Shown one piece after another: positions 575-14,081 of a stretch of 31,157 nucleotides of DNA (positions within the stretch are counted from its first letter, which is position 1; each line of letters opens with the position of its first letter). Under the pieces are notes generated by a model that saw only the letters and a program-made list of their open reading frames with translations, was not told where the DNA came from and made no database searches. The DNA is from a virus, in IMG/VR virus record IMGVR_UViG_3300042567_001012, positions 1 through 31,157 of that record; one strand, given 5' to 3'. A program made the position numbers and the translations under genes.

Positions 575-1954
575 TTATTTTTTTGCTAATAATCGTTCGA
601 TATCTAAGTGTCGATTCTTGAACTTTTTACGTTTTGTATATAGATCCGTTAGAATTTCTTTCAATACGGAAGTATCTTTGTTATCATAAATAGCACCTGT
701 TACAGAAACGATATAATTTTCATCATTTCTATATTTTTCCAATGTCGCTGTATCTTGAGTTTTCGTTATAAATGATTCAGGTGATATGTTATATTGTCTC
801 ATTACGGATGGATATAGGGAAGCATAATCGAAGCATGTTGCAGCTCTGAATATCCCAACTTCCGGTTCTTTAACATAAGCACCTTCATAAACACCTCTAA
901 CTGAATCTCCTCGTTCGTCTGCTATAACTAATTTTCTATCATAATATCCTTTCCAAAGGAGAGCTTCAGTAAGATTAACGGCTGAAGATGCTCGGTATAT
1001 GGACAAATTACAGAGACAAGACATTGTAAGAATCGCATTAATTGTTTTGAGTTTTTTATGTATTAAACAAACTATCGCAGCATCAATAGCATTGTAAAGT
1101 ACATATTTGTCATAATCATTTTCGTATAGTTCTTGCAGAGTTCCTTCATATTTTAATTTAGTTACTCCAAGAACAGCATTTCCTACGAAATCTAAAGTGT
1201 TGTTTTCTTTAATTGCAACTGTTCGGTCCCATCGACGATAAACATCTAAATAATCGATAATTCCAACGTGAGTTGGGATATTATCTTTACCGTAGATTTT
1301 CTTAGATGGTGAACATCTAGAAACGTCGATACCTATTTTCTTGCATCTATTATATATGTATTTCCAGTCGAATCCAATAAAGTTCCAACCAATCATTAAA
1401 CTGAAATTTGGAATGAATTTATTTATGAAAGTATACATCATGTTATATTCATCCTCGAAACAAATATATTTGAAATTCCATTCGCCATATTCTTTTAGAT
1501 ATTCTCGATGTTTATCGAATATCATCTTTTCTTGTTCTTTAGAAATAGGTTTCCACCCTAAAACAACAGTTGCATTAGCTTCAGTTGCAATAGCAATAGT
1601 TGTTATTCTTTCTCGAGCAATTTCGGGAACAGGGAATGAATCAATGACTTCAGTTTCAATATCTATTGATTGAATTTTTGGAAAGTTAAGTGCTGTGATT
1701 TCAGCCTTTTCATCTTCTGGCAGAGTATCGATAAATTCATATATAGAGAATTTATTGAATCGTGGAGAATTTTGTTTCTTTACAGATCTACCATTCCAAT
1801 TTTTGAATTCTGGATCTCTACGAGGATCTGAATCCGAGCAAACTTTCCAATTTGGACAATTATCTAATCGATAATCTTTAATTTTTATCTTTCCTTCCTT
1901 ATCGAAATAAGAAATAATTACTTGATTTTCGTTGTTTTCAACTTCTAGGATCAT
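575..1954 (-). CDS. 43: Family B DNA polymerase, N-terminal part only (exonuclease plus palm motif A); probable split gp43
   Basis: This 459-residue protein is the N-terminal half of a T4/RB69-type replicative polymerase. The proofreading exonuclease motifs are intact: Exo I D98-I-E100, Exo II N191-FIG-F195-D196 and Exo III Y287-NAI-D291. Polymerase motif A is present as D376-YASLYPSVM. The protein then ends at residue 459 in a basic helix (TKRKKFKNRHLDIERLLAKK), where the fingers domain begins. Motif B (K-x-x-x-N-S-x-Y-G) and the catalytic DTD of motif C are missing, and no other gene in the window has them. T4 gp43 is about 900 residues. The ATG at 1954 lies just after the stop of the preceding gene. 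I infer a split enzyme whose C-terminal half is encoded outside the window. A truncated remnant is the alternative, but the intact exonuclease and motif A argue against decay. Confidence 0.93.
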   Translation of the reverse strand: MILEVENNENQVIISYFDKEGKIKIKDYRLDNCPNWKVCSDSDPRRDPEFKNWNGRSVKKQNSPRFNKFSIYEFIDTLPEDEKAEITALNFPKIQSIDIETEVIDSFPVPEIARERITTIAIATEANATVVLGWKPISKEQEKMIFDKHREYLKEYGEWNFKYICFEDEYNMMYTFINKFIPNFSLMIGWNFIGFDWKYIYNRCKKIGIDVSRCSPSKKIYGKDNIPTHVGIIDYLDVYRRWDRTVAIKENNTLDFVGNAVLGVTKLKYEGTLQELYENDYDKYVLYNAIDAAIVCLIHKKLKTINAILTMSCLCNLSIYRASSAVNLTEALLWKGYYDRKLVIADERGDSVRGVYEGAYVKEPEVGIFRAATCFDYASLYPSVMRQYNISPESFITKTQDTATLEKYRNDENYIVSVTGAIYDNKDTSVLKEILTDLYTKRKKFKNRHLDIERLLAKK

Positions 1955-3179: not shown

Positions 3180-3452
3180 CTAAAAGGCCGATCTTAGGTC
3201 TTCACTACCTTTGATAAAATCTTTAAATCTTACAAAGGAGGATTTCTTCTTTTTCTGTGGTTGTCCTTTAGACAACGTATAAGGGATATCTCCAGATCCA
3301 GTCTCTTGAGTGACATAGTCATTCTGAGTTCCTGGATTTCCTGGCATTGAAGGAGCACCCATTCCACTAACTGAACTAACAGTTGCTGCAGCAGAATTTT
3401 CTTTTATGAAATCTTCATATGAGGACATAGGTGTATGTTTTCTTTTTGGCAT
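3180..3452 (-). CDS. Candidate capsid-targeted small protein with basic tail (90 aa)
   Basis: I do not recognise a domain. Near the N-terminus is SSYEDFIKE followed by NSAAA, which fits the T4 capsid targeting pattern with predicted cleavage after E18 (I-K-E). If M9 is the start (3428), the sequence MSSYEDFIKE is exactly the length of the T4 signal. I keep the ATG at 3452, 4 nt after the upstream stop. The middle is low-complexity (Gly, Ser, Pro, Met). The C-terminus is strongly basic (QKKKKSSFVRFKDFIKGSED) and repeats the motif in diverged form (FKDFIKG). Such a basic tail could bind packaged DNA. It is the last of four neighbouring candidates of this type. Confidence 0.7.
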   Translation of the reverse strand: MPKRKHTPMSSYEDFIKENSAAATVSSVSGMGAPSMPGNPGTQNDYVTQETGSGDIPYTLSKGQPQKKKKSSFVRFKDFIKGSEDLRSAF

Positions 3453-3456
3453 CTTA

Positions 3457-3789
3457 TTAGATGTAATTTTGAGATACCATTGCGTCGATAACTCGTCCGC
3501 TAATGGATTTGTATTTTTTAAGATATTGTTTTGCTACATCTCTAAGTTCTTCACATTGTCTAGATTGACCGAAAGGAGAACGTGTATTAGGATCTTCAGA
3601 TTCAGTATCCCACCACATTACAACTTCGTCATAAAGTTCATCTAACTCCTTTTCGTTTTTAGCAATTTTCTTTGAGAAATCTTCTTCTCCAACTGGAGTT
3701 CCTTTTTCATATTGTTTCCAATAAGCTATATCTCCTGCTTCATTGATTTTTGATTCATTAATGAATTCACTGAATGATTTAATTTTCAT
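3457..3789 (-). CDS. Candidate capsid-targeted internal protein (110 aa)
   Basis: The N-terminus, MKIKSFSEFINE-SKINE-AGD, has two consecutive matches to the gp21-type cleavage rule (L/I)-x-E followed by a small residue: I-N-E12|S13 and I-N-E17|A18. The first is preceded by the SFSEFINE signal. The remaining ~93 residues are charged and probably helical, with an acidic centre and an aromatic patch (YDEVVMWWDTES). No known domain is visible. It lies 8 nt after the preceding gene and 4 nt before the next, within a cluster of proteins sharing the signal. The gene is well supported by length and context; the packaging role is inference. Confidence 0.75.
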   Translation of the reverse strand: MKIKSFSEFINESKINEAGDIAYWKQYEKGTPVGEEDFSKKIAKNEKELDELYDEVVMWWDTESEDPNTRSPFGQSRQCEELRDVAKQYLKKYKSISGRVIDAMVSQNYI

Positions 3790-3797
3790 ATCTCGTT

Positions 3798-4064
3798 TTA
3801 TTTAATTTGAAATTCTGTATCACCAGAGAATTGAGCTCCAATGAGTTTTATATTTTTAGCTTCAAAACCTTCTTTCTTAAGAATCTCTTCAAGGACTTCT
3901 GGATATTTAAGAGCAAGACCTACACATTTGAAAACCTCTGAAGACTTTGTATATTCAACAACAGTTCTTAGTTTTTCTGAAACTAACTTCTTAACATCCG
4001 AAACCTTAGAATCATCTAAAGCTTCGGTTATTAAGTATTGTTCGTATGTAGGTAGATTTAACAT
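3798..4064 (-). CDS. Candidate capsid-targeted internal protein (88 aa)
   Basis: The N-terminus reads MLNLPTYEQYLITE-ALDD. TYEQYLITE matches the T4 capsid targeting sequence, with predicted cleavage at I-T-E14|A15. The mature part would be a compact alpha/beta domain of about 74 residues: two or three helices (VSDVKKLVSEKLRTVVEYTK and KYPEVLEEILKKEGF), then a strand pair (KNIKLIGAQF, TEFQIK). The fold is not recognised. The ATG at 4064 is one base after the upstream TAA, the tight TAA-N-ATG coupling common in this genome. Confidence 0.75.
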   Translation of the reverse strand: MLNLPTYEQYLITEALDDSKVSDVKKLVSEKLRTVVEYTKSSEVFKCVGLALKYPEVLEEILKKEGFEAKNIKLIGAQFSGDTEFQIK

Positions 4065-4065
4065 T

Positions 4066-4923
4066 TTAGTATTCTGTATCTTCTAGAGATAAATTCTTAT
4101 TTGCCCATTCGATTAAAGCTTTCTCCTGATTTATAGGATAAACAACGATTTGGAAATCTGAATAATCATCACCATCTTCATATGTAATAAGATCGATATT
4201 AGCATCAGCAATATGCCAATGGTAAGCAGGTCTTCTTTGATTAGATGAATGCCATGGAGAATTAAAACTTAATTCGGAAACTAATAAAACATTTTTATCT
4301 CCATCTTCTCTTCTTTTTTGAAATCCTATAAAAAGGGCAAGAACAAAATCGTATGCATTACTTTCTGAATCAATTATCATCAATTTATTTTCAGGAGTTT
4401 TAAGTGTTTTAGATAATGTAGTATACAATGTATTAAGTAATTTCATATCACAAACATCTTCACCTACTGATTTATTATCACTTTCGATCATTTTTATTCT
4501 GTTTGTAATAGTTGTAGCACCATCTTTAATATCAGCTGGATTTACAATTTTCCCTTCATTTAATCTGATATTTTTGAAAAGACCTACACATTCATTTAAC
4601 GATTGTTTTTGTGTAGTCTTACCAATCATTTCTAGAACACGTTTACCGTATTTAGAAAGAGTAATAACTTTTTGTCCTCTATTTTCGAAAGACTCGAAGT
4701 ATCTTTGATTTCTTCCGAACCATTTTTTATCATCAAAAGATTTTCCTGTCTCCTCATTCATTTTAGATAAGAAATTTTTCATTTCTTCCTCAGTAACAAA
4801 ACGTTTCCCTACAAAACCAATAACCTTGTTTCTTACGGGTGCTTTTTCGTTTACTTTAATTTTTGAGTACTGACCGTACTGTCTTTTGATTTGGGTTCTA
4901 CCTTCGTTAAGATTTTCTTCCAT
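4066..4923 (-). CDS. Hypothetical protein with three L-N-E processing-type sites (285 aa)
   Basis: I do not recognise a family. Three sites fit the T4 prohead-protease rule: L5-N-E7|G8, L109-N-E111|C112 and L121-N-E123|G124. Cutting at these would divide the protein into an N-terminal basic part (about 8-111) and a C-terminal domain (about 124-285). The C-terminal domain has hydrophobic strands (KLMIIDSES, VLLVSELSF, FQIVVYPI) and a His/Trp-rich loop (YHWHIADANIDLI), suggesting an alpha/beta fold. It lacks the aromatic-E-F signal but directly precedes three genes that have it. The ATG at 4923 follows an A-rich leader. It may be a structural or ejected protein; this rests on the site pattern and position only. 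Confidence 0.75.
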   Translation of the reverse strand: MEENLNEGRTQIKRQYGQYSKIKVNEKAPVRNKVIGFVGKRFVTEEEMKNFLSKMNEETGKSFDDKKWFGRNQRYFESFENRGQKVITLSKYGKRVLEMIGKTTQKQSLNECVGLFKNIRLNEGKIVNPADIKDGATTITNRIKMIESDNKSVGEDVCDMKLLNTLYTTLSKTLKTPENKLMIIDSESNAYDFVLALFIGFQKRREDGDKNVLLVSELSFNSPWHSSNQRRPAYHWHIADANIDLITYEDGDDYSDFQIVVYPINQEKALIEWANKNLSLEDTEY

Positions 4924-4954
4924 TTTTAGTTTTTTTTGTTTGTTTTTCTATATA

Positions 4955-6181
4955 TCAAAGTTTGACTCTTCTTGAATCATCCGTCTTTTTAGAGAAGAAT
5001 TCTTCATATGTAGGGAATGAATTAGATTCTCCTACCTTTTTAGTTTCTAAAACTTTATCTTTAATTTTCTTAGCTAGATCTATTGTATCATCAATAAGCA
5101 TTTGAGTTACAGTTCCACTCGGTTTCTTCTTCGGCTTAGAGAAAGAACTCATAAGAATTTTGAAGATATGCTTGTTGATTGTAGATTCTTTAATTAGATC
5201 TCTAACTTTTTGATCTTTAATGAATCCTGTATTAAGATCAAATTCAGGAACCGATGCAAAAGAAAGAGGATCTATTTCGATTCCATTGTACTTATAGCCA
5301 TATTTCTTCATGTATTGTGAAAAAATCTGACAAACAAGTTCTAAATATCTAGCATCTTCACCTTCTTCTTTAAGACCGTATTTTTGAAGTCCTGTTACTT
5401 TGATGTATTCAACTAGATCAGAAAGAATAATCCCGTAAAGATCTTGTGGTTCTCTTTCTTCGTCATTAGATCTGTTGATTTGTGTAATTACAGGATCTAT
5501 TACTTTTGAATGAAAAACTTCGCTTGTATCATCAGATATAAATTTGAAGATAATTGAATCGATTGGTTTTTCTATATCGTTTTTAAGAGCTGTAGCTTCA
5601 ATCTCAGGATTAAGAATTGATATGATATATTTAGTGAACGAATCCGTAGAGAATCTTTTTATTAACTCATCTTCGGGAGTTCTAAGATATTCTAAGATTC
5701 TTGTTTTTTGTGATTTATCTAACTTACCATACCAAATAACAGGAGGTTTTTCTACTCGTAGAAGATCTGATATTCCATTAAGAATTGTTACATCATCTAT
5801 GATTTTACCTGAAGGGTTTTTGATATCTGTTAAAACAAGACCGTTTAGCGGAATCTTATCATAAACGATATTAGCTGGTTTTGTGTTATGAAAATAACGA
5901 AGTCCGAATTTGAATCCTATAGGAAGTTTTATCATATCTTCTTTAGGAAGAGATTCGATAAATTTAATGGGACCTTCATAAAGTGAAGACATTGTTCTAT
6001 CAATAGATGTTATAGGTCCATCTTTTTTGAAGAATTTGATTCCCTGAGATCCATTGTATTCGAAACAAAATCTAGTAGCATTTAGCTTTTCACTAACAAC
6101 AACAAATCCATCTAGTAGTTTGTTGACGAAGGGCATTCCTTCTTTTAGATATACTTGTCTTAGGGATAAAATTTCTGCCAT
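4955..6181 (-). CDS. RNA/DNA ligase-like nucleotidyltransferase with altered motif I (408 aa)
   Basis: The N-terminal ~215 residues follow the plan of covalent nucleotidyltransferases (RNA/DNA ligases). Residues 31-38, EKLNATRF, stand where motif I (K-x-D-G-x-R) is expected, with K32 as the candidate nucleotidyl lysine. KKDGPITSIDR (52-62) and the stretch at 88-120 with FKFGLRYF and NIVYDKIP resemble the segments up to motif III. PIDSIIFKF (206-214) could be motif IV. The D-G of motif I is N-A here, so activity is uncertain. The C-terminal half is helical and ends with FPTYEEFFSK (389-398), close to the packaging signal of the neighbouring genes but at the wrong end. It shares base 6181 with the stop of the preceding gene. 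The ligase-superfamily assignment is by motif pattern only. Confidence 0.6.
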   Translation of the reverse strand: MAEILSLRQVYLKEGMPFVNKLLDGFVVVSEKLNATRFCFEYNGSQGIKFFKKDGPITSIDRTMSSLYEGPIKFIESLPKEDMIKLPIGFKFGLRYFHNTKPANIVYDKIPLNGLVLTDIKNPSGKIIDDVTILNGISDLLRVEKPPVIWYGKLDKSQKTRILEYLRTPEDELIKRFSTDSFTKYIISILNPEIEATALKNDIEKPIDSIIFKFISDDTSEVFHSKVIDPVITQINRSNDEEREPQDLYGIILSDLVEYIKVTGLQKYGLKEEGEDARYLELVCQIFSQYMKKYGYKYNGIEIDPLSFASVPEFDLNTGFIKDQKVRDLIKESTINKHIFKILMSSFSKPKKKPSGTVTQMLIDDTIDLAKKIKDKVLETKKVGESNSFPTYEEFFSKKTDDSRRVKL

Positions 6182-6393
6182 TACTTTCCGTTTTGAGCGT
6201 TTTTATAACTTTTCATTGTTTCCAAGAATTCGGTAAGTTGTTCTTCGTCAAGTTCGGAGGGATCTTTAGCACCATATTTAGAAAGATTTTCATTGAATAT
6301 CTTTTTGAAATTTTGTGCAGCAGTTTCACGAAGCTTATTTTCCTTAGCCTCTGTTCTTAATTTTGCAAATGTTCTGTATTTAAGCAAAGCCAT
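6181..6393 (-). CDS. Small charged helical protein (70 aa)
   Basis: The product (MALLKYRTFAKLRTEAKENK...) is almost wholly charged helix, with a basic first half and an acidic segment (DPSELDEEQLTEFLETMK). A GTG three codons upstream (6402) would overlap uvsW. I prefer the ATG at 6393, which lies just after the uvsW stop at 6395 and follows an A-rich leader. The stop overlaps the ligase-like start by one base (TAATG). The composition resembles small phage scaffold or core proteins, but I cannot assign it. It is probably co-translated with uvsW and the ligase-like gene. Confidence 0.7.
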   Translation of the reverse strand: MALLKYRTFAKLRTEAKENKLRETAAQNFKKIFNENLSKYGAKDPSELDEEQLTEFLETMKSYKNAQNGK

Positions 6394-6394
6394 T

Positions 6395-7927
6395 TTATTC
6401 ACTATTTTTACTATATATCTTCTTCAAGTCCATACGTCTTATGCTGAACGGGAAGTTTTGATCCGTGTAAATAGCTTGTCTGACTTCTGAATGCTTATAA
6501 AGATAGTTCTTAAATTTACCTGTACAATAATCATCTACGAAATCGATAATTACTAGCTTCTTCTTATCAGCATGTTTTCTAAGTCCTCTACCGATAGATT
6601 GTCTAATAATTACCTCTGATTTGAATGATTCTGTTAAGTAAATTGTATGTATATTTTTAACGTTAATTCCTGTAGAGAAGGTTCCGAAGGATGCAATCAT
6701 AATCTTACCTTCACCTTCTTCTAACATATCTTTTTGATATTCTCTAAGATCTTTATTAACCGATCCATCTATGTAAAAGATTTTTCGGTCTGTTTTCGAT
6801 CTGAGCTTATCATATATTTTATTTCCATATTCAATTCGATAGAAAAGAACTAATGAATTCTTATTGTTCTTTAGAATCATATCTGTAATGAATTCTAATC
6901 TTTCTTCGGATTGTATAGCATATTGTTGTTCTAGATTAAGAAGTTTCTTTCGATCTTCTTCGGATCTTTGAAATAACATTTTGAATCCGTCTTTTACTTC
7001 TTGTCGAGCATAATCCATTTCGATAACATAAACTTCACAAGGCGTAATATGTCCTTGTTCCATCAAATAATCTGCTCGAATCGAAGTAATCACAGGTCCT
7101 GTATATGCCATAAGTGTTAGACGATCAAGAGTTCCTGGTTTAGGAATTGTTCCAGATAGACCAAATTTTCTTCCTGCATTTTCACATTTTTCTAAAATAG
7201 TTTTAATAGAAGCCGATTTAGCTTTATGAGTTTCGTCGACTATTACCGTATCAAATTGATCAAAATAAGTTTTATCTTTCTTTACGAGAGATTGATATGT
7301 TCCTATAACGATATTTGATTTTTCTCGAATAACAGATCCTGCAAAAATTTGTTGAATATCTATTTTCAATTTACACGATTCTTCGTTATATTGGTAAAAA
7401 TCTTCTGTTCCTTGAACGACAAGATCCACTGTAGGAACAATCATTAAAACCTTTCTAGCTTTTTTCGTTTCTAGAAGATAAGCAATTGCCATATAAGTAA
7501 TCAAAGTCTTTCCTGCAGAAGTTGCTAGTTCAGCTAAGCAATTTTGATATTTAATGATATTGAAAACTGTATTAACCTGATAATCTCTAGGTTTTCTTTC
7601 TTCTACATTTGCCCATTTTTCATCGACCCAAGATTGAAATTCTTCTTGGTCGATATCTCTATCAAATTTATTTTCTATTCCTTCTATATGAAGTTCGAAA
7701 TTATAAAGTTTACAAATATCTACAACTTCTGACCAAAGCCCTGAAGGTAGATATCGGTCTGATTTGAAGTATGAGATATAACCATCCCACCAACCTTTCT
7801 TTACTCTTGGATCCCATTTCGCATTAGCTGTTTGTCTTCTGAATGATAAATTAAGTTGATCAATTTCTAATCCAGTTGCTTCAGTTAATGTTAGGATTCT
7901 ATCATTATGTGTTAGTGTCCATTTCAT
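6395..7927 (-). CDS. uvsW: UvsW superfamily 2 helicase
   Basis: This is an ATP-dependent branch-migration helicase of the T4 UvsW type. It processes recombination intermediates and R-loops and supports the switch to recombination-dependent replication. At 510 residues it is close to T4 UvsW (about 503). Visible motifs are Walker A (ATSAGKT, 135-141), the DETH box (231-234), the SGT of motif III (258-260) and motif VI with Q443 and the arginine fingers (RQSIGRGLRKH, about 442-452). The first ~110 residues form the small N-terminal domain typical of UvsW. It directly follows uvsY with 2 nt between, an adjacency conserved in T4. The ATG at 7927 is clear. All catalytic motifs look intact. Confidence 0.95.
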   Translation of the reverse strand: MKWTLTHNDRILTLTEATGLEIDQLNLSFRRQTANAKWDPRVKKGWWDGYISYFKSDRYLPSGLWSEVVDICKLYNFELHIEGIENKFDRDIDQEEFQSWVDEKWANVEERKPRDYQVNTVFNIIKYQNCLAELATSAGKTLITYMAIAYLLETKKARKVLMIVPTVDLVVQGTEDFYQYNEESCKLKIDIQQIFAGSVIREKSNIVIGTYQSLVKKDKTYFDQFDTVIVDETHKAKSASIKTILEKCENAGRKFGLSGTIPKPGTLDRLTLMAYTGPVITSIRADYLMEQGHITPCEVYVIEMDYARQEVKDGFKMLFQRSEEDRKKLLNLEQQYAIQSEERLEFITDMILKNNKNSLVLFYRIEYGNKIYDKLRSKTDRKIFYIDGSVNKDLREYQKDMLEEGEGKIMIASFGTFSTGINVKNIHTIYLTESFKSEVIIRQSIGRGLRKHADKKKLVIIDFVDDYCTGKFKNYLYKHSEVRQAIYTDQNFPFSIRRMDLKKIYSKNSE

Positions 7928-7929
7928 TT

Positions 7930-8376
7930 CTAAAAGTTTTTGTGATGAAATTCTTCTATAGAAATTCTATTTCTAATAGCGAATCCCATTTTATCCACCG
8001 TTTCAATACATTGATTGAAAAACAAAATCTGATTGTCTAGTAGTTCTGTTTGACGAGTTCTTATAGCCATATCGGAATCGATGAATTGGTTTATTTCACG
8101 ATAATCCAAACGGACATCATGTTGTGTTTTATAGTATTCAAATCTTAGCTTTCTAAAATTCTGATCATTTGTTTTCTTTTTATAAACAGCAGACCTATAT
8201 TTAGATGCCTTTTCAACAAACATATGTCGATAAGAAAGCATAAATACTTGAGCTTCTGGTATTTGATCTATCTTATTGATCTTAGAAATCAAATCCGAAA
8301 GTTTAACCCCATATTCTACACGTTCCTTTTCGAGGGCTTCGTCTATATCGTTTACTTTTCTTTCTTCTTCGGTCAT
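7930..8376 (-). CDS. uvsY: UvsY-like recombination mediator
   Basis: UvsY loads the UvsX recombinase onto gp32-coated single-stranded DNA. This 148-residue helical protein is close to T4 UvsY in length (137). Its C-terminal part, with CIETVDKMGFAIRNRIS and EEFHHK, aligns with the T4 region around GALDAIKSRGFAIKHI and RAFEAGK. The central basic segment (YRSAVYKKK...RKLRFEYYKT) is also in the expected place. It lies immediately upstream of uvsW, as in T4. The ATG overlaps the stop of the previous gene (TAATG). Similarity is modest at residue level, so the call rests on pattern, length and gene order together. Confidence 0.8.
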   Translation of the reverse strand: MTEEERKVNDIDEALEKERVEYGVKLSDLISKINKIDQIPEAQVFMLSYRHMFVEKASKYRSAVYKKKTNDQNFRKLRFEYYKTQHDVRLDYREINQFIDSDMAIRTRQTELLDNQILFFNQCIETVDKMGFAIRNRISIEEFHHKNF

Positions 8377-8612
8377 TAGAATAGTGAATTATCTTCTTTT
8401 TTATTTCGAATTTTTAGATCTATAACAGATCCCTTTTTAACCTTTTTGGTTTTATATTTTATGCTTTCTACCTCAAAAGGGTTTATTTCAACTTTTTTAT
8501 CGTCTATATCGAAATCGACAATAAGCTTAATGTTTCCTTTCTTAGAAGATTCGAAGAATTTTTCAAGTTCATTTTCCATAGCACTATACGCTTCGGATGT
8601 CCAGTGGTTCAT
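8376..8612 (-). CDS. Small hypothetical protein between primase and uvsY
   Basis: The reading frame is open from 8681, but the primase coding region ends at 8584, so the full-length version would overlap it by almost 100 nt. I place the start at the ATG at 8612 (MNHWTSEAYSAMENELEKFF), giving 78 residues and a 29-nt overlap. The ATG at 8579, 4 nt after the primase stop, would give 67 residues and is almost as good. The product has an acidic helix, then three beta-type segments (NIKLIVDFDI, KVEINPFEVESIKY, SVIDLKI) with alternating charge, like a small beta-barrel or sandwich. No family is recognised. It sits in the recombination group, so an accessory role is possible. Confidence 0.65.
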   Translation of the reverse strand: MNHWTSEAYSAMENELEKFFESSKKGNIKLIVDFDIDDKKVEINPFEVESIKYKTKKVKKGSVIDLKIRNKKEDNSLF

Positions 8613-9648
8613 GTGTAAAGTATTTATCGAGATTTTTAATTGCTTCGTTTTTATTTTTCCAACAGTAGATGAACAGATCATTTAGATCTTTAACTTGTTC
8701 TCTTACTTTGAAATCTCTAACGAGCTTATTCCACATGAAGACATTTTTTCTTTTTTTAAGTTTTGCTTCCATAACTCTTCTTCCTGCATTATCATTATCG
8801 AAGAGATATCGTATTGTATTTATATCATCAAACATTTCTGTCGGTTTGTCTGCACCTGTTATAGCTATTGAATTTGGTTGTAAAAAGGAATCAATAACAC
8901 CTTCAAATATAGTAACATTCTTAGAGAAATCGGTTGATAGAATACCGAAGTAAAGACTCATAGTATTTAACTTAATTATTTCGTCTTCTGATCGATCTTC
9001 GATGCCTCGACCGAAAAGTAGATAGTTTATTTTTTCTATATTGAAACTGACGTATTTAGCTCTGTTTTCTTGAAAGTTTCTAATCTGCCATCCTAGAATT
9101 TTAGTTTTATCTGGAGTTAGATTGAGAACATATAACTGATCTTTCTTTTTATCGTAAAGGAAGTGATCCATCTTAAAATGCATGAATCGAGCTTTAAGAT
9201 ATTTTTCAATAGTCATATCTTCAGAAGGATGTAAGAGTCTTAGTTTTGATTTGACGGTTTCGTAAGGAATACCGAATTCAACAAGATTTTGAAATGTGTT
9301 GAGTTCAAGATATTCCTTAGTTACCGTTGATACACGATGTTCACGTATATAATCTAAAAAGAACGTTAATTCATCGGTATTTTGAACAGGACTGTTAAAA
9401 TCTTTATAGAAATTTACAAGATTAGTGTGCTTTTTACAACCATCATTGAAGCAATGATACATTAGATTTGCCCAATAGATATTAGCACGTTTTTTGTGTT
9501 CATTCGTAGAATCCCCACAATAAGGACATGCAAAGTTAAGTCTATCTCTAAAAAATCTTACTTCCCCCTTTACTCCTGAGAATTCTGATTTTATGATATT
9601 TTCGACCTTAGCATTAATCTGTAATTTTTTCTGTTCAGTTATTTCCAT
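8584..9648 (-). CDS. 61: DNA primase, gp61/DnaG type
   Basis: This enzyme makes RNA primers for lagging-strand synthesis, normally with the gp41 helicase. The 354 residues match T4 gp61 in size (342). The N-terminal zinc-binding module has C41-PY-C44, H65-C66 and C71. The TOPRIM domain shows the metal-binding glutamate E249 (FEGVIDS) and the DxD pair D284/D286 (FDNDNAG). The C-terminal tail (VKDLNDLFIYCWKN) is typical of phage TOPRIM primases. The gene starts 5 nt after the rmlA stop and is followed by a small gene and then uvsY-uvsW. No gp41 helicase gene is seen in this window. Confidence 0.93.
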   Translation of the reverse strand: MEITEQKKLQINAKVENIIKSEFSGVKGEVRFFRDRLNFACPYCGDSTNEHKKRANIYWANLMYHCFNDGCKKHTNLVNFYKDFNSPVQNTDELTFFLDYIREHRVSTVTKEYLELNTFQNLVEFGIPYETVKSKLRLLHPSEDMTIEKYLKARFMHFKMDHFLYDKKKDQLYVLNLTPDKTKILGWQIRNFQENRAKYVSFNIEKINYLLFGRGIEDRSEDEIIKLNTMSLYFGILSTDFSKNVTIFEGVIDSFLQPNSIAITGADKPTEMFDDINTIRYLFDNDNAGRRVMEAKLKKRKNVFMWNKLVRDFKVREQVKDLNDLFIYCWKNKNEAIKNLDKYFTHEPLDIRSV

Positions 9649-9653
9649 TATTT

Positions 9654-10574
9654 TTAATATGTCCCGTGAATGTGTAAAGGTTCATTTTCAGCAATAGAAG
9701 TTAGATATTCACCATATCCACTTTTTTCATATTTCTTAGCTATAGATAACAATTGATCCTTATCAATCCATTTCATTTTATATGCAATCTCTTCAATACA
9801 TCCAACTTTTTGTCCTTGTCTCTTTTCGATCATATGAATAAATTGACCTGCTTCCATAAGGGATTCAAAAGTTCCGGTATCTAACCATGCAGTTCCTCTT
9901 TGTAATTGAGCAACATGTAAATGACCTTCGTCTAAATAGATTTGATTGATGTCGGTAATTTCTAATTCTCCTCGATTCGAAGGCTTAAGATTTTTTGCCA
10001 TTTCAACGACTTTATTATCGTAAAAATAAAGTCCTGGGATAGCAAAGCTAGATTTTGGATTTTTCGGTTTTTCTTCGATAGATAGTACTCTATTCATATT
10101 ATCGAATTCTACTACACCATAACGTTCAGGATCACTAACATGATATGCAAATACACAAGCTCCTTGAGAAGGTGCAACTCCACGGAATCCATCCCATTCC
10201 ATTGTTTTCGTTTTAAGCATTCCAGCTAATCCAGAAGAGTAAAAGATATTATCTCCTAGAATTAAACAAACGGCATTATCTCCAATAAAATCTTCGGCTA
10301 TAATGAATGCTTCTGCTATTCCACGAGCTTCAGTTTGAACTTCATATTCGAATTTACATCCTAATTCGGATCCATCACCTAGAAGTTTTTTCATTGAATG
10401 AACGTCTTCTGGGTTTGTAATAATCATAATCTCTTTGATTCCAGCTAACATCAAAATAGAGATTGGGTAATATATCATTGGTTTGTCATAAACAGGCAAA
10501 AGCTGTTTTACTTGAGTTGTAGTAATAGGAAGCAATCTAGTTCCTTTACCACCGGCTAATACGATTCCTTTCAT
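9654..10574 (-). CDS. rmlA: Glucose-1-phosphate thymidylyltransferase
   Basis: This enzyme joins glucose 1-phosphate and dTTP to give dTDP-glucose, the first step of dTDP-rhamnose and related sugar pathways. The full length of 306 residues fits the family (about 290). Diagnostic motifs are the nucleotide-binding GGKGTR (8-13), QLLPVYDKPM (24-33), GDNIF (107-111), EEKP (167-170), RGELEITD (201-208) and WLDTGT (230-235). One deviation is EARGIAEAF (82-90), where enzymes of this family usually have a P-x-G-L-A-Q-A type segment. It lies inside the replication block between gp32 and primase, directly downstream of a terminator hairpin. No rmlB, rmlC, rmlD or glycosyltransferase is in the window. 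It is an auxiliary metabolic gene, probably host-derived, for glycosylating virion, DNA or host surface. Confidence 0.96.
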   Translation of the reverse strand: MKGIVLAGGKGTRLLPITTTQVKQLLPVYDKPMIYYPISILMLAGIKEIMIITNPEDVHSMKKLLGDGSELGCKFEYEVQTEARGIAEAFIIAEDFIGDNAVCLILGDNIFYSSGLAGMLKTKTMEWDGFRGVAPSQGACVFAYHVSDPERYGVVEFDNMNRVLSIEEKPKNPKSSFAIPGLYFYDNKVVEMAKNLKPSNRGELEITDINQIYLDEGHLHVAQLQRGTAWLDTGTFESLMEAGQFIHMIEKRQGQKVGCIEEIAYKMKWIDKDQLLSIAKKYEKSGYGEYLTSIAENEPLHIHGTY

Positions 10575-10582
10575 AATTTTTT

Positions 10583-10620
10583 AGAATAAAAAAAGGGCAC
10601 CCCTATAAGAGATGCCCTTT
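10583..10620 (-). terminator. Strong intrinsic terminator after gene 32
   Basis: On the minus strand, AAAGGGCAUCUC pairs with GGGGUGCCCUUU across a five-base UUAUA loop. This gives a 12-bp stem with two G-U pairs, followed by a run of seven or more U. It begins 14 nt past the gene 32 stop. The rmlA ATG lies only about 17 nt beyond the stem, so downstream genes need read-through or a promoter inside gene 32. Confidence 0.85.
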
Positions 10621-10633
10621 GATTTAATTTGAT

Positions 10634-11590
10634 TTATTTAATATCGAATTCTTGTAACCAAGATTCAATATCTGAGTCATTTGAATTACCGGCATCTTTC
10701 GAAGCGGAATCAATAGATGGTGTTTCTTTAACAATGTTGTTTTCAGTAGTTCCAGCCATTGGAGCTGAAGTCATTTCTGATTTAACAGGAGTTGGAGAAG
10801 AAACAGCTTGGTAAGCAGCACCAGGATTAGATCCTGTAAGTTCTGCGATGTAATTGAATACCTTTTCACGAAGTTCGTTAGTCCATGGTTTGAATTCTTG
10901 ATCTTCTAAAGCAGAAGCACCTGTATAGATTCCCATGATCATTTTACGACATTCTTCATTGTTTTCCATTTGAGCACCGTTAAGTTTAACAGATGCTGGA
11001 GTATTTCCGAATTTACATTCATCATAATTCCAATATCCACCTTTCATGGTTACTTTTAATTGGAAATCTTTTCCTTGGAAGAAGTCAAAGATGTTTGTTG
11101 GTTCGATTCCCATTTCGATATCTTCAGCAGATGGCTGAATTTGAGCATCGATAAGTTTCTTAACGGCTCTAGGGAAACGGAATAATTGAACTGTGTTTTC
11201 CAATTCAGGACGTTGTGGATCCTTTACAATCAAAACATATGAGTAGTAATACTCTTTACGTTTAATTTTTTCAGCTTGTTTCTTTTCGAATGCTGATTCG
11301 GATTTATAAAGTTTCCAGAAAGTATCTTGGATAACTGATTTTTCACCTGGAACAGATGAAGGACAATCTGCATAGAATCCACTTCCTTCGGCATTTTCTA
11401 ACCAATAGGAGTATTTTCTTACGATAGATTTTTTAGGGTTGTTAAGATTCGGAATGAATCTGATAACTGCTCTGTAGATAGAGTCTTTTGAATTTTTTGG
11501 ATCTGTTTTGTAGATGTCAGTTCCACTTGTTTGTTTTTCCTCGGTTTTGAAATTGTCGAGGCTTAGATTAAAAATGTCTAAATTTTCCAT
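10634..11590 (-). CDS. 32: Single-stranded DNA-binding protein, gp32 type
   Basis: This protein coats single-stranded DNA during replication, recombination and repair. Its 318 residues compare with 301 for T4 gp32. The N-terminal LAST-like segment, the RAVIRFIPN strand (40-48), the YWLEN region and SYVLIVKDP (117-125) follow the gp32 core. A Ser/Pro/Thr-rich linker leads to an acidic C-terminal tail (DSDIESWLQEFDIK, 305-318), the expected site for partner proteins. The T4 zinc ligands (His64, Cys77, Cys87, Cys90) have no equivalent: only C76 lies in that region, and it has no CxxC partner. A long leader upstream and a strong terminator downstream make it a self-contained unit that could be autoregulated. 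Confidence 0.92.
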   Translation of the reverse strand: MENLDIFNLSLDNFKTEEKQTSGTDIYKTDPKNSKDSIYRAVIRFIPNLNNPKKSIVRKYSYWLENAEGSGFYADCPSSVPGEKSVIQDTFWKLYKSESAFEKKQAEKIKRKEYYYSYVLIVKDPQRPELENTVQLFRFPRAVKKLIDAQIQPSAEDIEMGIEPTNIFDFFQGKDFQLKVTMKGGYWNYDECKFGNTPASVKLNGAQMENNEECRKMIMGIYTGASALEDQEFKPWTNELREKVFNYIAELTGSNPGAAYQAVSSPTPVKSEMTSAPMAGTTENNIVKETPSIDSASKDAGNSNDSDIESWLQEFDIK

Positions 11591-11776
11591 TTGCTTTACT
11601 TTTTTATTTACGTTATTATTTATATGAACTTACAGTTAAGAGATTCACTTACAATTACTTACTACTCCGGATTAATGTTCGTTGTAGGATTATCACTTAC
11701 TTTAAGTACCTTACTTACTTTTTTATTTACTAATTAGATATTATATGTATCTATGTTGATTAGAGTTTCTTTATCT
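11591..11776 (-). promoter_or_regulatory. 32: Gene 32 leader with GUAAGU repeats
   Basis: This is the longest gene-free stretch, 186 nt, in front of gene 32. On the minus strand it holds five GTAAGT hexamers (plus-strand ACTTAC at 11628, 11647, 11657, 11695 and 11713), spaced 19, 10, 38 and 18 nt apart. An AT-rich tract leads to the ATG. A 6-bp inverted repeat (11760-11765 with 11775-11780) straddles the end of the upstream gene. T4 gene 32 is repressed by its own product binding repeats and a pseudoknot in its mRNA leader. A similar translational operator is a reasonable inference here, but I see no clear pseudoknot. Confidence 0.45.
11617..11624 (-). promoter_or_regulatory. Possible T4-like late promoter element TATAAATA
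   Basis: TATAAATA on the minus strand equals the T4 late-promoter consensus and ends 26 nt before the gene 32 ATG. The same octamer occurs at 1981-1988, with identical spacing to the polymerase-fragment ATG. Other copies (8817, 11967, 29913) fall inside genes without useful positions, so in this AT-rich DNA chance is a real possibility. Confidence 0.3.
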
Positions 11777-12112
11777 CTAATTTATTTTTTCATATTTGTA
11801 ACCGCCTTTTCGGATCAATGACCAAAATCGAGTTCCAAATGTCCCTTCATCTACTGCATCTTTCCCGAATAACTTTCTTGCTCCACTCGCTATACCACCT
11901 CCTATTTTTTGAAGGAGATTCTTTTCTAGTGAAAGTTCTCGCCAAACAGATTTAGGAACTTCACTATATTTATATTTTGATCCATCATGAAATTCTATTT
12001 CTAGAATCTCTGTATCTGAATCATAGTCCATCGAAATTAAATGAGAAGATTCAACTTCTTTCTCCCATTTCTTTTCAAAAAGGAATTCATCGTATTTTAG
12101 AAATTGATTCAT
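11777..12112 (-). CDS. KTSC-domain protein with capsid-targeting-like N-terminus (111 aa)
   Basis: The N-terminus, MNQFLKYDEFLFE-KKWEKE, fits the packaging signal with a possible cut at L-F-E13|K14. The rest is a KTSC domain: VESSHLISMDYDSDTEILEI (20-39), then FHDGSKYKYSEVPKSVWREL (41-60), with the closing GTRFWSLIRKGGYKYEKI (93-110). KTSC domains are small beta-rich modules named after a fusion to lysyl-tRNA synthetase, and their own function is not well defined. An extra Gly/Ala/Lys-rich insert (IGGGIASGARKLFGKDA, 70-86) splits the domain and looks amphipathic. The start overlaps the HNH-gene stop as ATGA, so the two are translationally coupled. Confidence 0.8.
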   Translation of the reverse strand: MNQFLKYDEFLFEKKWEKEVESSHLISMDYDSDTEILEIEFHDGSKYKYSEVPKSVWRELSLEKNLLQKIGGGIASGARKLFGKDAVDEGTFGTRFWSLIRKGGYKYEKIN

Positions 12113-12459
12113 ACGTATCCAAATTGATTTATTTTTTCGAATAGCTCATCTGTGGTATGTCCACATTTAGCATTTTTCTTCTTATTTTCTTTAGCTTTCA
12201 ACATTTGTAGATTGCAAGGGTGTGCTATGAAAAAAGGATTTATTCTATCTTTGAAAGCTTGGGATATCGAATAGATATGATCTAAATGATTAGCCTTCCA
12301 ACTTCTTTTAAGATTTTTTGGATTGATTTGTGACTTAAATATATCGTAATTCTTTTCAGTTAAAGCTCGTACAAAGATAAAATAATCTTCCTTAGTATCA
12401 AGAAGACCATCAAAGTTATCTCTATAACTTTCAAAATTGATTAGATTTGGATTTAACAT
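12109..12459 (-). CDS. HNH-like endonuclease (116 aa)
   Basis: H58-L-D-H61-IYSIS, then PCNLQML (81-87) and ENKKKN (91-96), follow the beta-beta-alpha-metal HNH pattern: DH on the first strand, N in the middle, N/K on the helix. It is a single compact domain preceded by a helical segment, like free-standing phage HNH endonucleases. A GTG at 12492 would overlap the previous gene, so I place the start at the ATG at 12459 (MLNPNLINFESY), one base after that gene's TAA. It could be a homing endonuclease or a DNA-processing nuclease; tight coupling on both sides argues for a resident gene rather than a recent insertion. Confidence 0.7.
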   Translation of the reverse strand: MLNPNLINFESYRDNFDGLLDTKEDYFIFVRALTEKNYDIFKSQINPKNLKRSWKANHLDHIYSISQAFKDRINPFFIAHPCNLQMLKAKENKKKNAKCGHTTDELFEKINQFGYV

Positions 12460-12460
12460 A

Positions 12461-12622
12461 TTAAGGATTTGTTGCTCCGGTTGCACCTGCACCTGCTAAT
12501 CCCGTGACAGTTGTGCTATCATCATTAAGTAGGAGAAGTTGAATCATTTGTAATCTAGCTTCTTCTTCTCTTCGACGACGTTTTTTAGCATTCTGTTGAT
12601 ATAACCATTCTGGTGTAGGCAT
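12461..12622 (-). CDS. Small basic/Gly-Ala hypothetical protein (53 aa)
   Basis: The ATG at 12622 follows an A-rich leader, and the TAA at 12461-12463 is one base before the next ATG at 12459. The product starts MPTPEWLYQQNAKKRRRREE, continues as an acidic/hydrophobic helix (EARLQMIQLLLLNDD) and ends in a Gly/Ala/Thr-rich tail (GLAGAGATGATNP). The Arg-rich patch could bind nucleic acid or phosphate. No family is recognised. The gene is supported by exact spacing and by the need to fill the gap between two real genes. Confidence 0.65.
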   Translation of the reverse strand: MPTPEWLYQQNAKKRRRREEEARLQMIQLLLLNDDSTTVTGLAGAGATGATNP

Positions 12623-12632
12623 AATTTCTTAT

Positions 12633-12968
12633 TTATTTTCCTGTTGTTCTATTCTTTTCAATCCAAGCTTTGAATATCTTAATAGCATCTCTCATTTCTG
12701 GTGTTTGATGTTCATGTTTTTCAGCTCTATTCATCATGGTAGTAGCAACTGACATTGCCCACATATGTTCACCTTTCTTTTCTAGATCATCTAATTGTTT
12801 GCAAGTAGATTCGGCTTTTTCAGCATTTGCATATCCAGTTCCTTTTAGAGCATACTTACCTCCACCTGTGTAAAGTCCATCTTCTTTCGGATCCCCTGGA
12901 GCTCTCTTATGTCCTTGACCTTTATCTCCTTCGTTGATAAATTCATCGAAATCCATTATATTTTTCAT
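12633..12968 (-). CDS. Candidate capsid-targeted internal protein (111 aa)
   Basis: The N-terminus, MKNIMDFDEFINE-GDKGQG, fits the capsid targeting motif, with predicted cleavage at I-N-E13|G14. An upstream TTG (12974) is in frame, but the ATG at 12968 puts the signal right at the start. After a Gly/Lys-rich segment come helices with many Glu, Lys, Met and His residues (EKKGEHMWAMSVATTMMNRA, then KHEHQTPEMRDAIKIFKAWI). It resembles no domain I know. A leader of about 130 nt with a hairpin precedes it, so it may be separately expressed. Confidence 0.72.
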   Translation of the reverse strand: MKNIMDFDEFINEGDKGQGHKRAPGDPKEDGLYTGGGKYALKGTGYANAEKAESTCKQLDDLEKKGEHMWAMSVATTMMNRAEKHEHQTPEMRDAIKIFKAWIEKNRTTGK

Positions 12969-13099
12969 AGTCAATCTTTTTTTATATTTTATTTATCTTT
13001 TTTTGGATTCTGAAACTCACTCAACCTAGAGTACATATAACCATTACTGGTTGTTTAGGTAAAAGGATAACAGTTACGACAAGGATCCACTTCAGTTAG
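12969..13099 (-). promoter_or_regulatory. Structured leader with GUAA-capped hairpin
   Basis: This 131-nt gap lies between the RuvC-like gene and the gene starting at 12968. On the minus strand, AACCA-GUAA-UGGUU (13039-13052) forms a perfect hairpin with a GNRA-type loop. ACCUA and UAGGU (13056-13060 with 13024-13028) close an outer stem around it. The stretch before the ATG is very A-rich. It carries no U-tract, so it is not an intrinsic terminator; an RNA-processing or regulatory leader is possible. No tRNA cloverleaf fits. Confidence 0.45.
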
Positions 13100-13714
13100 T
13101 TATTCCACTTCAATAAGAGTTAGTGCTATGGCATCCACTAAGTCATCTAAAGGCTTAGGTATATTGAATTCCCCTTCTACTACGATATTTAATTTCTCTA
13201 TTTCTTTCTTAAGTTTACCATCGGATTTTTCCATAAAGGATCTAAGCATATCACATTTGGAAGCATTACCGTTTCCTGTGTAAGCTTTCTTTATTGACTT
13301 AGGAGAAATAACTTTGATTATATGCCCAAACTTCTGAATGAGCTTGACCTTTAAGAATGTGTTAAATGTAATCATATCAATGAAAGAATTTCCTTTAGAT
13401 CCAAACGAAAATCCTTCAATTCTGATCTCTGTGGGAATGATTCCTGTGTAATTGAATATCTCTATAATCTCATTAGATAGTTCATCAGCGTTCCTTAGTT
13501 TGATCGCCTGATCCTCTATAGCATCTTTAATTAGATTATCTTTATTATATGAAGTAATTGTTGCGGTTTTTGATTCGTGAAGAATCTTATGTAATTGAAA
13601 TCCTTTTAGCTTTGGATTGTAATTAGGAACGAATGAAAAAAGTAGAAATTTATCTTTCGTCGTCTTAATCGCTATAGCTGTTGAATTAATTGAAAAGTCT
13701 ATACCAATAATCAT
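13100..13714 (-). CDS. RuvC-like (RNase H fold) nuclease, candidate Holliday junction resolvase
   Basis: The RuvC acidic residues are all in place: D6 in MIIGIDFSINSTAIAI, E100 in RIEGFSFGSKGN, and D190/D191 with D194 in the C-terminal LDDLVDAIALT. At 204 residues it matches phage and bacterial RuvC-type resolvases. The ATG at 13714 directly follows the stop of the previous gene as TAATATG; a longer open frame to 13741 would overlap that gene. T4 resolves branched DNA with endonuclease VII, an unrelated His-Me finger enzyme, so this may be the functional substitute for clearing junctions before packaging. A different DNA-processing role is not excluded. Confidence 0.8.
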   Translation of the reverse strand: MIIGIDFSINSTAIAIKTTKDKFLLFSFVPNYNPKLKGFQLHKILHESKTATITSYNKDNLIKDAIEDQAIKLRNADELSNEIIEIFNYTGIIPTEIRIEGFSFGSKGNSFIDMITFNTFLKVKLIQKFGHIIKVISPKSIKKAYTGNGNASKCDMLRSFMEKSDGKLKKEIEKLNIVVEGEFNIPKPLDDLVDAIALTLIEVE

Positions 13715-13715
13715 A

Positions 13716-14081
13716 TTACATTCTTTTACCGATTGCAGCACCTAAAGCAGCACCAACTAATCGACTAGTTAATAAGTCAAATACAACACCTCTTTCTATT
13801 CCTAAAACATTTGCAATAATTTTTCCAACCGAAGATCCAAGAGCAAATCCAGTAAGTCCGCCTATAATAGAACCTAAGAAACCTTCGTTTGTTAGTTCTT
13901 CATTAAATTCTTTAAGTCCTTTGCTTTTTTCTAAGTATTCTTCACAGAATTTTTTAACTGCTTCGTCTACTTTTTTCTCTTCGTCTTCAGTTAGCTCAGA
14001 CTTGAGATTTTCGTTCATCATCCATATCTCAATGTCTGAGAATGTTCCTGATTCGATTAAGTATTCTTTAAATGTTTTCAT
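13716..14081 (-). CDS. Capsid-targeted glycine-zipper protein (121 aa)
   Basis: The N-terminus MKTFKEYLIE-SGTF is almost the T4 internal-protein signal MKTYQEFIAE, in the same length and register, with predicted cleavage after E10. An acidic helical segment follows (15-65). The C-terminal part (67-121) is a glycine zipper: GFLGSIIGGLTGFALGSSVG, then LVGAALGAAIGKRM. Such segments pack tightly in membranes and occur in pore-forming or membrane-associated proteins. The combination suggests a packaged protein that meets the host membrane during DNA entry. It is the first small gene after the virion module, 12 nt past the tail-tube-like gene. Confidence 0.78.
   Translation of the reverse strand: MKTFKEYLIESGTFSDIEIWMMNENLKSELTEDEEKKVDEAVKKFCEEYLEKSKGLKEFNEELTNEGFLGSIIGGLTGFALGSSVGKIIANVLGIERGVVFDLLTSRLVGAALGAAIGKRM

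What the first reader, a model, noticed from the sequence alone, without database searches (positions are those of the whole stretch)
3180..14081. Dispersed set of six proteins sharing a T4-like capsid targeting signal
Six otherwise unrelated small proteins open with aromatic-x-E-(F/Y)-(I/L)-x-E: MKTFKEYLIE|S (13716), MKNIMDFDEFINE|G (12633), KYDEFLFE|K (11777), PTYEQYLITE|A (3798), SFSEFINE|S (3457) and SSYEDFIKE|N (3180). T4 internal proteins carry MKTYQEFIAE, which targets them into the prohead and is cleaved by gp21 after (L/I)-x-E. The downstream sequences are all different, so the shared part behaves like a sorting tag on varied cargo. I infer a set of proteins packaged in the capsid and delivered with the DNA, possibly acting against host defences or at DNA entry.
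Basis: partly seen in the sequence, partly recalled or inferred. Interest (0 to 1): 0.9.

Follow-up and report, generated by a model that had tools for sequence, protein, structure and literature searches.

The report
Capsid-packing tags on huge-phage proteins
A large bacterial virus marks dozens of unrelated proteins with a short, probably cut-off address tag that seems to load them into the virus head, much as the classic phage T4 does with a few, and one of them copies the arm of the virus's own shell protein.

Summary
Six of the 29 ORFs I called in the window carry the tag at the N-terminus; a tag model trained only on other phages gives them 10 to 25 bits, the next best ORF -2.5. The window is a fragment of a huge T4-like phage. 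Relatives encode a gp21-type prohead protease fused to a scaffold, beside gp23, and carry the tag on up to 53 of 438 genes, with 52 unrelated bodies. The tag keeps the T4 capsid-targeting register and ends in I/L-x-E. The same heptad recurs every 14 residues in the scaffold part of seven relatives, so the tag looks like one scaffold repeat. Proteins are swapped or fused at tag-like sites. The 3180 protein is not free cargo: after its tag it copies the mature N-arm of the lineage's gp23, then has a lysine-rich stretch. T4 gp61.1 and proteins of LR745206 and Lak-C1 do likewise with their own gp23. Prohead targeting plus cleavage is very likely; ejection and anti-defence roles are untested.

The parts
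13716..14081 (-). Tagged protein, 121 aa; tag MKTFKEYLIE (14052-14081). A second possible site LTNE|G precedes a glycine-zipper hydrophobic segment.
   Evidence: PWM 18.6 bits; weak Gly-zipper match, E 0.0067, below Pfam's cut-off; homologs in 8 of the 10 relatives searched, the tag degenerate in G009 and G013
12633..12974 (-). Tagged protein, 113 aa; tag MKNIMDFDEFINE (12930-12968). Body is a three-helix unit that reads as present twice in longer orthologs.
   Evidence: PWM 14.0 bits; alignment A3; model mean pLDDT 65.8, residues 1-42 below 50
11777..12112 (-). Tagged KTSC-domain protein, 111 aa; tag MNQFLKYDEFLFE (12074-12112). Compared with G008 this body now follows the tag of the neighbouring gene.
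   Evidence: PWM 19.3 bits; KTSC 2.4e-14; blastn blocks overlapping at window 12074-12095
3798..4064 (-). Tagged protein of unknown fold, 88 aa; tag MLNLPTYEQYLITE (4023-4064)
   Evidence: PWM 10.0 bits, one residue off register; orthologs in G008, G002, G007
3457..3789 (-). Tagged protein, 110 aa; tag MKIKSFSEFINE (3754-3789)
   Evidence: PWM 25.4 bits; homologs G006_20179 (E 3.1e-10) and G009_272249 (E 0.0002); in the latter the body follows an internal PVNE|G site
3180..3452 (-). Tagged capsid N-arm mimic, 90 aa; tag (M)SSYEDFIKE (3399-3452)
   Evidence: PWM 13.1 bits; its G008 ortholog is the best non-self match to the gp23 N-arm in that proteome
3273..3398 (-). Within the mimic: 42 residues resembling the mature gp23 N-arm (GMGxxxxPGxPGTQ...GSGD), followed by a KKKK stretch
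   Evidence: score 109 to G008 gp23 vs shuffle mean 30.2, sd 4.5, 0 of 2000 reach it
4066..4923 (-). Neighbouring two-domain protein with likely cut sites (ENLNE|G at the start, IRLNE|G inside); its second domain matches separately tagged proteins in G009 and G010
   Evidence: not one of the six, scores -14.4 by the tag model

Best explanation
The six N-termini are cleavable capsid targeting sequences of a huge T4-like phage. Inferred steps: (1) the aromatic heptad [FY]x[ED][FY][IL]xE docks the precursor in the prohead core, because it looks like one unit of the 14-residue repeat in the scaffold part of the protease-scaffold fusion; (2) when the shell is complete, the gp21-type protease cuts after the Glu in the scaffold repeats, at the gp23 junction (LxE|S/N) and at the tags; (3) the freed proteins stay in the head with the DNA, and at least some are probably ejected into the host. 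Separately, the mature 3180 protein starts with a copy of the gp23 N-arm and then has lysines, so it probably docks in N-arm sites of the shell, for instance at vertices or beside the portal, while its lysines contact DNA or core. Shown here: the motif, its genome-wide N-terminal enrichment, unrelated bodies, the protease and gp23 in relatives, the same heptad in the scaffold repeats, and the N-arm similarity. Not shown: packaging, cleavage, ejection, binding site.
For: N-terminal enrichment in independent genomes with few decoys. 52 body families of 53 tagged proteins in G009 and 34 of 35 in G010. 53 of 53 tag 21-mers in G009 differ at the DNA level, so the protein sequence is what is kept. 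The register equals T4's CTS: an amber study of T4 ipIII found targeting mainly at residues 4 and 7 and processing at 8 and 10, and gp21 cuts after L/I-x-E (PMC9026906 passages). The model trained only on huge-phage tags scores T4 ipIII 21.1 and ipII 18.7 bits, and its best window in T4 gp23 is the known cut site, though at only 1.4 bits (next -1.2). gp21 and gp23 families exceed their cut-offs next to each other in G006, G008 and LR756500; gp21 exceeds it in 7 of 7 further contigs. The scaffold heptads are spaced in multiples of 14 (one final heptad off phase in five of seven), and 0 of 2000 shuffles reach the count in 7 of 7 proteins. Several fusion junctions carry I/L/V-x-E sites, such as VDEFILE|K before a KTSC domain. 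Tagged genes form islands: 32 adjacent pairs in G009 against 6.3 at random, maximum 16 in 2000.
Against: No virion proteomics or cut N-termini are available. The window contig has no protease or capsid gene. Lak-C1 has protease and gp23 but no tag enrichment, so this head type does not need the tag; T4, PAU and Lak-C1 show no scaffold protein leading the heptad count, so the scaffold-repeat idea is confined to this clade and LR745206. In LR745206 and LR756501 the gp21 match is below the curated cut-off. In G006 and G010 the N-arm mimic has only a short MKxxKE start. Decoys are not always rare: LR745206 5 of 650 against 20 of 920, Lak-C1 4 of 467 against 1 of 615. Some low-scoring tagged hits are probably chance, such as ORFs in LR756500 that read as UvsX and topoisomerase at 9 and 10 bits. 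Some fusion rows show no recognisable cut site. In G008 tagged genes are not clustered beyond chance (5 pairs vs 3.0, maximum 7).
Confidence: 0.87

Rival explanations
1. The tagged proteins are head-assembly or core components that stay in the head or are degraded; they are not delivered to the host. The tag is real but its purpose is morphogenetic.
For: Several tagged genes sit in the head gene cluster near protease and gp23. One tagged protein is an N-arm mimic, a structural role. T4 IPIII mutants had head-assembly aberrations (PMC9026906 passage).
Against: Dozens of unrelated bodies in islands, some with domains such as RimK ATP-grasp and LRR, look like cargo rather than core parts.
Confidence: 0.3
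2. The shared N-termini come from duplicated 5' ends (gene duplication or a shared regulatory or ribosome-binding leader), not from a protein signal.
For: Tags are sometimes similar at DNA level between unrelated genes (window 3752-3811 and G008 3318-3375, E 1.3e-6). LR756500 has a tagged family of seven, LRR proteins among its tagged set.
Against: Identical peptides use different codons (53 of 53 distinct 21-mers in G009). The motif recurs inside scaffold proteins and at internal fusion junctions, where no start codon or leader is involved.
Confidence: 0.05
3. The tag sends proteins to another compartment or is cut by another protease, such as a tail, membrane or nucleus-like shell.
For: The glycine-zipper body of 13716 could be membrane-active (weak match), and its gene lies beside a tail tube gene.
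Against: The cut-site rule LxE followed by a small residue is shared with the gp23 junction, and the heptad with the scaffold repeats, of the same phages. None of the other 23 called window ORFs, tail proteins included, has the tag.
Confidence: 0.07

Closest known systems
T4 internal proteins IPI, IPII, IPIII and their capsid targeting sequence
   Same: Short N-terminal tag with the same aromatic positions and I/L-x-E end, unrelated mature bodies, S77 prohead protease near gp23
   Different: Dozens of tagged proteins in some records instead of a handful; tag resembles a 14-residue scaffold repeat; protease fused to scaffold; tagged units fused into likely polyproteins
T4 gp61.1 (hypothetical protein of T4-like phages)
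   Same: Tag, then a copy of the phage's own gp23 N-arm, then a lysine-rich tail
   Different: The bodies of the two mimics are not clearly similar (65 of 2000 shuffles reach the score); each matches its own gp23; in some huge phages the mimic is fused to DUF3008 or to further domains
phiKZ and SPN3US head and ejection proteins
   Same: Head-packaged proteins with N-terminal propeptides cut after Glu by a distant gp21-like protease (PMC10052503 and PMC9026906 passages)
   Different: In SPN3US nine substrates, most propeptides long (111-254 residues), cut after AxE
MuF-fused and polyvalent packaged effectors
   Same: Diverse effectors packaged in heads (PMC9503650 passages)
   Different: They are proposed to reach the head by fusion to head proteins or as large multidomain proteins, not by a short shared tag

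Membership tests
T4-type CTS internal proteins | N-terminal tag with aromatic residues at P7 and P4 | tested here: met
   five of six window tags in exact register; 3798 is shifted by one residue; positions per PMC9026906
T4-type CTS internal proteins | I/L-x-E cleavage site at the tag's end | tested here: met
   all six, by sequence
T4-type CTS internal proteins | unrelated mature bodies | tested here: met
   6 families of 6 in the window, 52 of 53 in G009
T4-type CTS internal proteins | gp21-type protease in the same phage | tested here: inconclusive
   absent from the 31-kb fragment; above cut-off in 4 of 12 records including close relative G008 and in 7 of 7 further records
T4-type CTS internal proteins | present and cut in the virion | not testable with these tools
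   needs mass spectrometry
T4-type CTS internal proteins | ejected into the host | not testable with these tools
   needs infection experiments
Peptidase S77 prohead protease (relatives) | Pfam PF03420 above curated cut-off | tested here: met
   G008 44.7 bits in the genome search, 42.6 bits as a protein, cut-off 27
Peptidase S77 prohead protease (relatives) | catalytic residues | not tested
   not aligned to T4 gp21 residue by residue
gp61.1-like N-arm mimic | best non-self match in the proteome to the phage's own gp23 N-arm | tested here: met
   tested on the G008 ortholog, since gp23 is outside the window: 110 vs next 45; T4 77 vs 40
gp61.1-like N-arm mimic | tag before and lysine-rich stretch after the mimic segment | tested here: met
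   window 3180 and T4 gp61.1
gp61.1-like N-arm mimic | homology of the body to gp61.1 | tested here: inconclusive
   BLASTP aligns only the tags (E 0.002); bodies score 35 vs shuffle mean 24.1, 65 of 2000 shuffles reach it; so it works alike but is not shown to be a homolog

The most novel reading that the evidence does not exclude
In this clade the capsid address is one unit of the scaffold's own 14-residue repeat, so any gene that gains one repeat at its N-terminus is carried into the head and trimmed. This has grown into a general protein-packing system, with about 20 to 50 tagged genes in the larger records (6 in the smaller G013 and G014), shuffled and fused at the tags. Alongside it, distant T4-like phages each keep a small protein that copies their own capsid N-arm, including T4 gp61.1, pointing to an overlooked shell component.
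Probability: 0.6. Interest if true: 0.87.

Novelty: new variant of a known kind. Interest (0 to 1): 0.77.

Why it matters
It gives a readable address label for proteins that huge phages may carry into cells, turning scores of hypothetical genes into a testable list. It offers a concrete model for how a capsid targeting sequence works, as a scaffold repeat. It also suggests a function class for T4 gp61.1, a small protein of the best-studied phage for which my two searches by name listed no functional study.

Tried and rejected
A C-terminal version of the tag (without the Glu) is conserved in the ligase-like and mimic families but is not enriched genome-wide apart from weak values in the window and G009, so I do not claim a general C-terminal signal. 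I tested whether each mimic matches its own gp23 better than relatives' gp23: it does between distant lineages, not among close ones. There the own score was bettered by 5, 22, 9 and 14 of 75 gp23 arms for loci L242, L246, L238 and L236; the L241 row of that script compared a wrong antisense ORF and is void (corrected). The N-arm mimic was looked for in 12 gp23-bearing genomes: found in 10, not found in PAU or P-SSM2. Of the 10, G009 is weak (63 against a next best of 59, gapped; 52 vs shuffle mean 22.1, 0 of 1000), and G010 was found only by direct translation because my gene caller chose an antisense ORF. Pfam, PHROGs, PADLOC and NCBIfam scans of 136 of 140 tagged proteins (4 crossed chunk borders) gave no dominant function. 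A structure search with the 12633 model gave no match at E 0.001 or below. The single regex was replaced by a position model because it had been shaped by the window. The relaxed pattern used on T4 and PAU was too loose and was dropped.
Full report
What was checked. The window is a virus record of 31,157 bases with T4-type replication genes (DNA polymerase, UvsW, UvsY-like, primase, single-strand binding protein, RuvC-like) and a tail tube match. Its UvsW is 53% identical to that of LR756500, a 462-kb phage genome, and 98% identical to those of three IMG/VR contigs. The close relative G008 (46.6 kb) is collinear at 89 to 95% DNA identity over most of the window's first 17.7 kb.

Chance. With the pattern [FYW]x[EDQ][FYW][ILVMF]x1-2E near a start, the window has 6 matches against 0.04 expected from the internal rate. 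The pattern was derived from these six, so the fair test is elsewhere. G009 (294 kb) has 45 against 0.87, G010 25 against 0.46, LR756500 23 against 0.79, G006 16 against 0.31, LR745206 (634 kb) 24 against 2.29, G014 6 against 0.54, G013 6 against 0.29 and P-SSM2 4 against 0.46. Lak-C1 (2 against 0.72) and PAU (1 against 0.46) show no enrichment. A position model trained on 101 tags of LR756500, G006, G009 and G010, window excluded, separates the window's six (10.0 to 25.4 bits) from its other 23 called ORFs (at most -2.5). At 8 bits or more it finds 53 of 438 genes in G009 (3 of 295 internal decoys), 35 of 336 in G010 (0 of 236), 22 of 228 in G006 (1 of 159), 30 of 669 in LR756500 (1 of 439), 20 of 920 in LR745206 (5 of 650), 13 of 52 in G008 (1 of 43), 6 of 172 in G014 (1 of 149), 4 of 260 in T4 (0 of 159), 4 of 289 in PAU (0 of 222) and 1 of 615 in Lak-C1 (4 of 467). 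The four training genomes are of course favoured by this model. G008 shares orthologs with the window and is not independent of it.

Bodies and codons. After removing the tag, the bodies fall into 52 families of 53 in G009, 34 of 35 in G010, 22 of 22 in G006 and 23 of 30 in LR756500, where one family of seven is tagged repeatedly; five of the 136 scanned proteins match LRR models. The 136 proteins aligned together have a consensus only over the first 13 residues. All 53 tag 21-mers in G009 and 29 of 30 in LR756500 differ at DNA level although peptides repeat, so the protein sequence is under selection. Tagged genes form islands: 32 adjacent pairs in G009 against 6.3 at random (maximum 16 of 2000), 19 against 3.5 in G010, 10 against 2.0 in G006, 7 against 1.3 in LR756500; G008 is not different from random.

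Protease, scaffold and capsid. PF03420 (gp21) exceeds its cut-off in 4 of 12 records and in 7 of 7. In one search two more, LR745206 and LR756501, match below the cut-off; the six records without a match are fragments of 8 to 55 kb. PF07068 (gp23) exceeds its cut-off in 6 of 12. In G006, G008 and LR756500 the protease domain lies in an ORF of 632 to 634 residues near gp23. Much of the rest of this ORF is a repeat region: heptads ending in Glu, [FYHW]xx[FYHLMW][ILVM]xE, occur 4 to 14 times per protein. In all seven relatives examined the repeat-region heptads are spaced in multiples of 14; in five, one last heptad lies out of phase. No shuffle of 2000 reached the count in any of the seven. These seven proteins rank first in their genomes for this heptad; in T4, PAU and Lak-C1 the counts are 2 or 3 at most and the leading ORFs are others. 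In LR745206 the repeat ITYSEYLAE scores 12.5 bits with the tag model. In 74 of the 80 gp23 loci fetched, all those whose N-terminus could be read, the residues before the N-arm are L-x-E followed by S or N (34 LNE|S, 27 LYE|N, 9 LYE|S, 2 LNE|N, 1 LSE|N, 1 LHE|N). The tag's P1' is S 33, A 22, N 8, G 5 of 101.

Same register as T4. T4 work summarised in PMC9026906 (passages read) placed targeting mainly at residues 4 and 7 of the ten-residue CTS, processing at 8 and 10, and gave the gp21 rule L/I-x-E. In the window tag MKTFKEYLIE these are F4, Y7, L8 and E10. The model trained on huge phages scores T4 ipIII and ipII at 21.1 and 18.7 bits and gp61.1 at 14.7; in T4 gp23 its top window is the known junction, but only at 1.4 bits.

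Tags as joints. Between the two blocks collinear with the window, 532 bases of G008 have no counterpart, and the blocks overlap by 22 bases inside the tag of the KTSC gene (window 12074-12095), so one tag now precedes the neighbour's body. G007 has the two-gene form too, so a deletion in the window's lineage is the likelier direction. In other relatives tagged bodies occur inside longer proteins after a cut-like site: VDEFILE|K before KTSC in G010, PVNE|G before the 3457-type body in G009, SVNE|G in G010, IRLNE|G in window 4066-4923. G014 has a 536-residue ORF that starts with MISSFDDFLDE|, then a domain weakly related to window 4066-4923 (E 0.0007), DUF3008, an N-arm mimic, and FSESLINE|A before another stretch. 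Some fusion rows show no clear site.

The capsid N-arm mimic. The 3180 protein after its tag reads like the mature N-arm of this lineage's gp23 (score 109 to G008 gp23; shuffles mean 30.2, sd 4.5, 0 of 2000) and then has a lysine stretch. In whole called proteomes the best non-self match to the phage's own N-arm is such a protein in T4 (gp61.1, 77 vs next 40), G008 (110 vs 45), G006 (115 vs 37), LR756500 (95 vs 50), Lak-C1 (66 vs 52), G013 (120 vs 48), G014 (98 vs 40) and, weakly, G009 (63 vs 59). In LR745206 a gp23-like fragment with the delta region ranks first (96), followed by two mimics (94, 86). G010 has one by translation. PAU (best other match 56, a protein that reads like a dihydrofolate reductase) and P-SSM2 (40) show none. 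Each of five lineages' mimics matches its own arm best: T4 70 vs at most 23, G008 110 vs 91 for its kin LR756500, LR756500 95 vs 78, LR745206 94 vs 42, Lak-C1 73 vs 32. Scanning 50-residue windows along gp23, the arm is the top region for small proteins in T4, G006, G008, G013, Lak-C1 and LR756500; LR745206 has further gp23-like fragments that score as high or higher elsewhere. Window mimic and gp61.1 compared directly align over the tag (E 0.002); their bodies alone are inconclusive (65 of 2000 shuffles). Searched against the PDB, gp61.1's best hit is T4 gp23 (E 0.0067), aligned across the cut site, residues 58-94. The mimicked stretch is the N-fist, residues 66-91 of gp23 (PMC7136217 passage; N-fist also in PMC9958956). 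N-fists beside the portal are disordered; that the mimic fills N-fist sites there or at vertices is my inference. gp61.1 is matched in 1,386 of 50,697 phage records, some of which may be hits on gp23 itself. Three records already name such a protein major capsid protein, but the searches listed no paper that by title or abstract treats this likeness; the two that hold the name gp61.1 list it in gene tables (passages).

Literature on huge phages. The listings and passages of PMC13282480, PMC7824862, PMC9503650, PMC12363816 and PMC7162821 showed no report of a capsid targeting sequence in this clade. The library holds only part of the literature, and I read passages, not whole papers.

Conclusion. 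The tag system is a strongly supported, expanded version of the T4 capsid targeting sequence. Packaging, cutting and delivery remain to be shown at the bench.

Noticed in passing
window 4955-6181 (-): 408-aa protein with a predicted T4 RNA ligase 2-like fold (best PDB match 2hvr, E 9.8e-7; model mean pLDDT 74) and a degenerate KxDG-like motif; orthologs in LR756500 and G013 carry an added C-terminal domain with a GRFQPxTLGH nucleotidyltransferase-like motif (motif names recalled).
   Followed up: partly
window 4955-6181 C-terminus and 3180-3452 C-terminus: Tag-like sequences without the P1 Glu (TYEEFFSKK, FVRFKDFIKG), seen again in orthologs; possibly uncut targeting signals. Not enriched genome-wide.
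   Followed up: partly
window 13716-14081 (-): After a second LTNE|G site the protein is a glycine-zipper-like hydrophobic segment; a membrane-active peptide could be released.
   Followed up: no
T4 record NC_000866 114210 (+): MLLEFKQFLYE|A scores 17.1 bits with the tag model, inside the region annotated uvsW and flagged for sequence discrepancies; recalled to be UvsW.1 in corrected sequence.
   Followed up: partly
L057:10752-12254 (G006), also G010 109121: A tagged RimK-like ATP-grasp protein with a weak Zn_protease-like match, encoded within 4 kb of gp23 in G006.
   Followed up: no
LR745206 (W02) 460435-460686: An 83-aa ORF made of scaffold-type 14-residue repeats (NYEDYIAE..SYSEYISE..), separate from the scaffold gene.
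   Followed up: no
G009 tags: Tag codons favour C-ending forms (TAC 0.72 vs 0.30 genome-wide, AAC 0.51 vs 0.30), little or not in LR756500.
   Followed up: no
window 575-1954 (-): DNA polymerase ORF of 459 aa that matches residues 100-488 of an 856-position polymerase profile; the polymerase may be split.
   Followed up: no
window 9654-10574 (-): An ORF that reads like a glucose-1-phosphate nucleotidylyltransferase (recalled motif, not searched) lies between the primase and single-strand binding protein genes.
   Followed up: no
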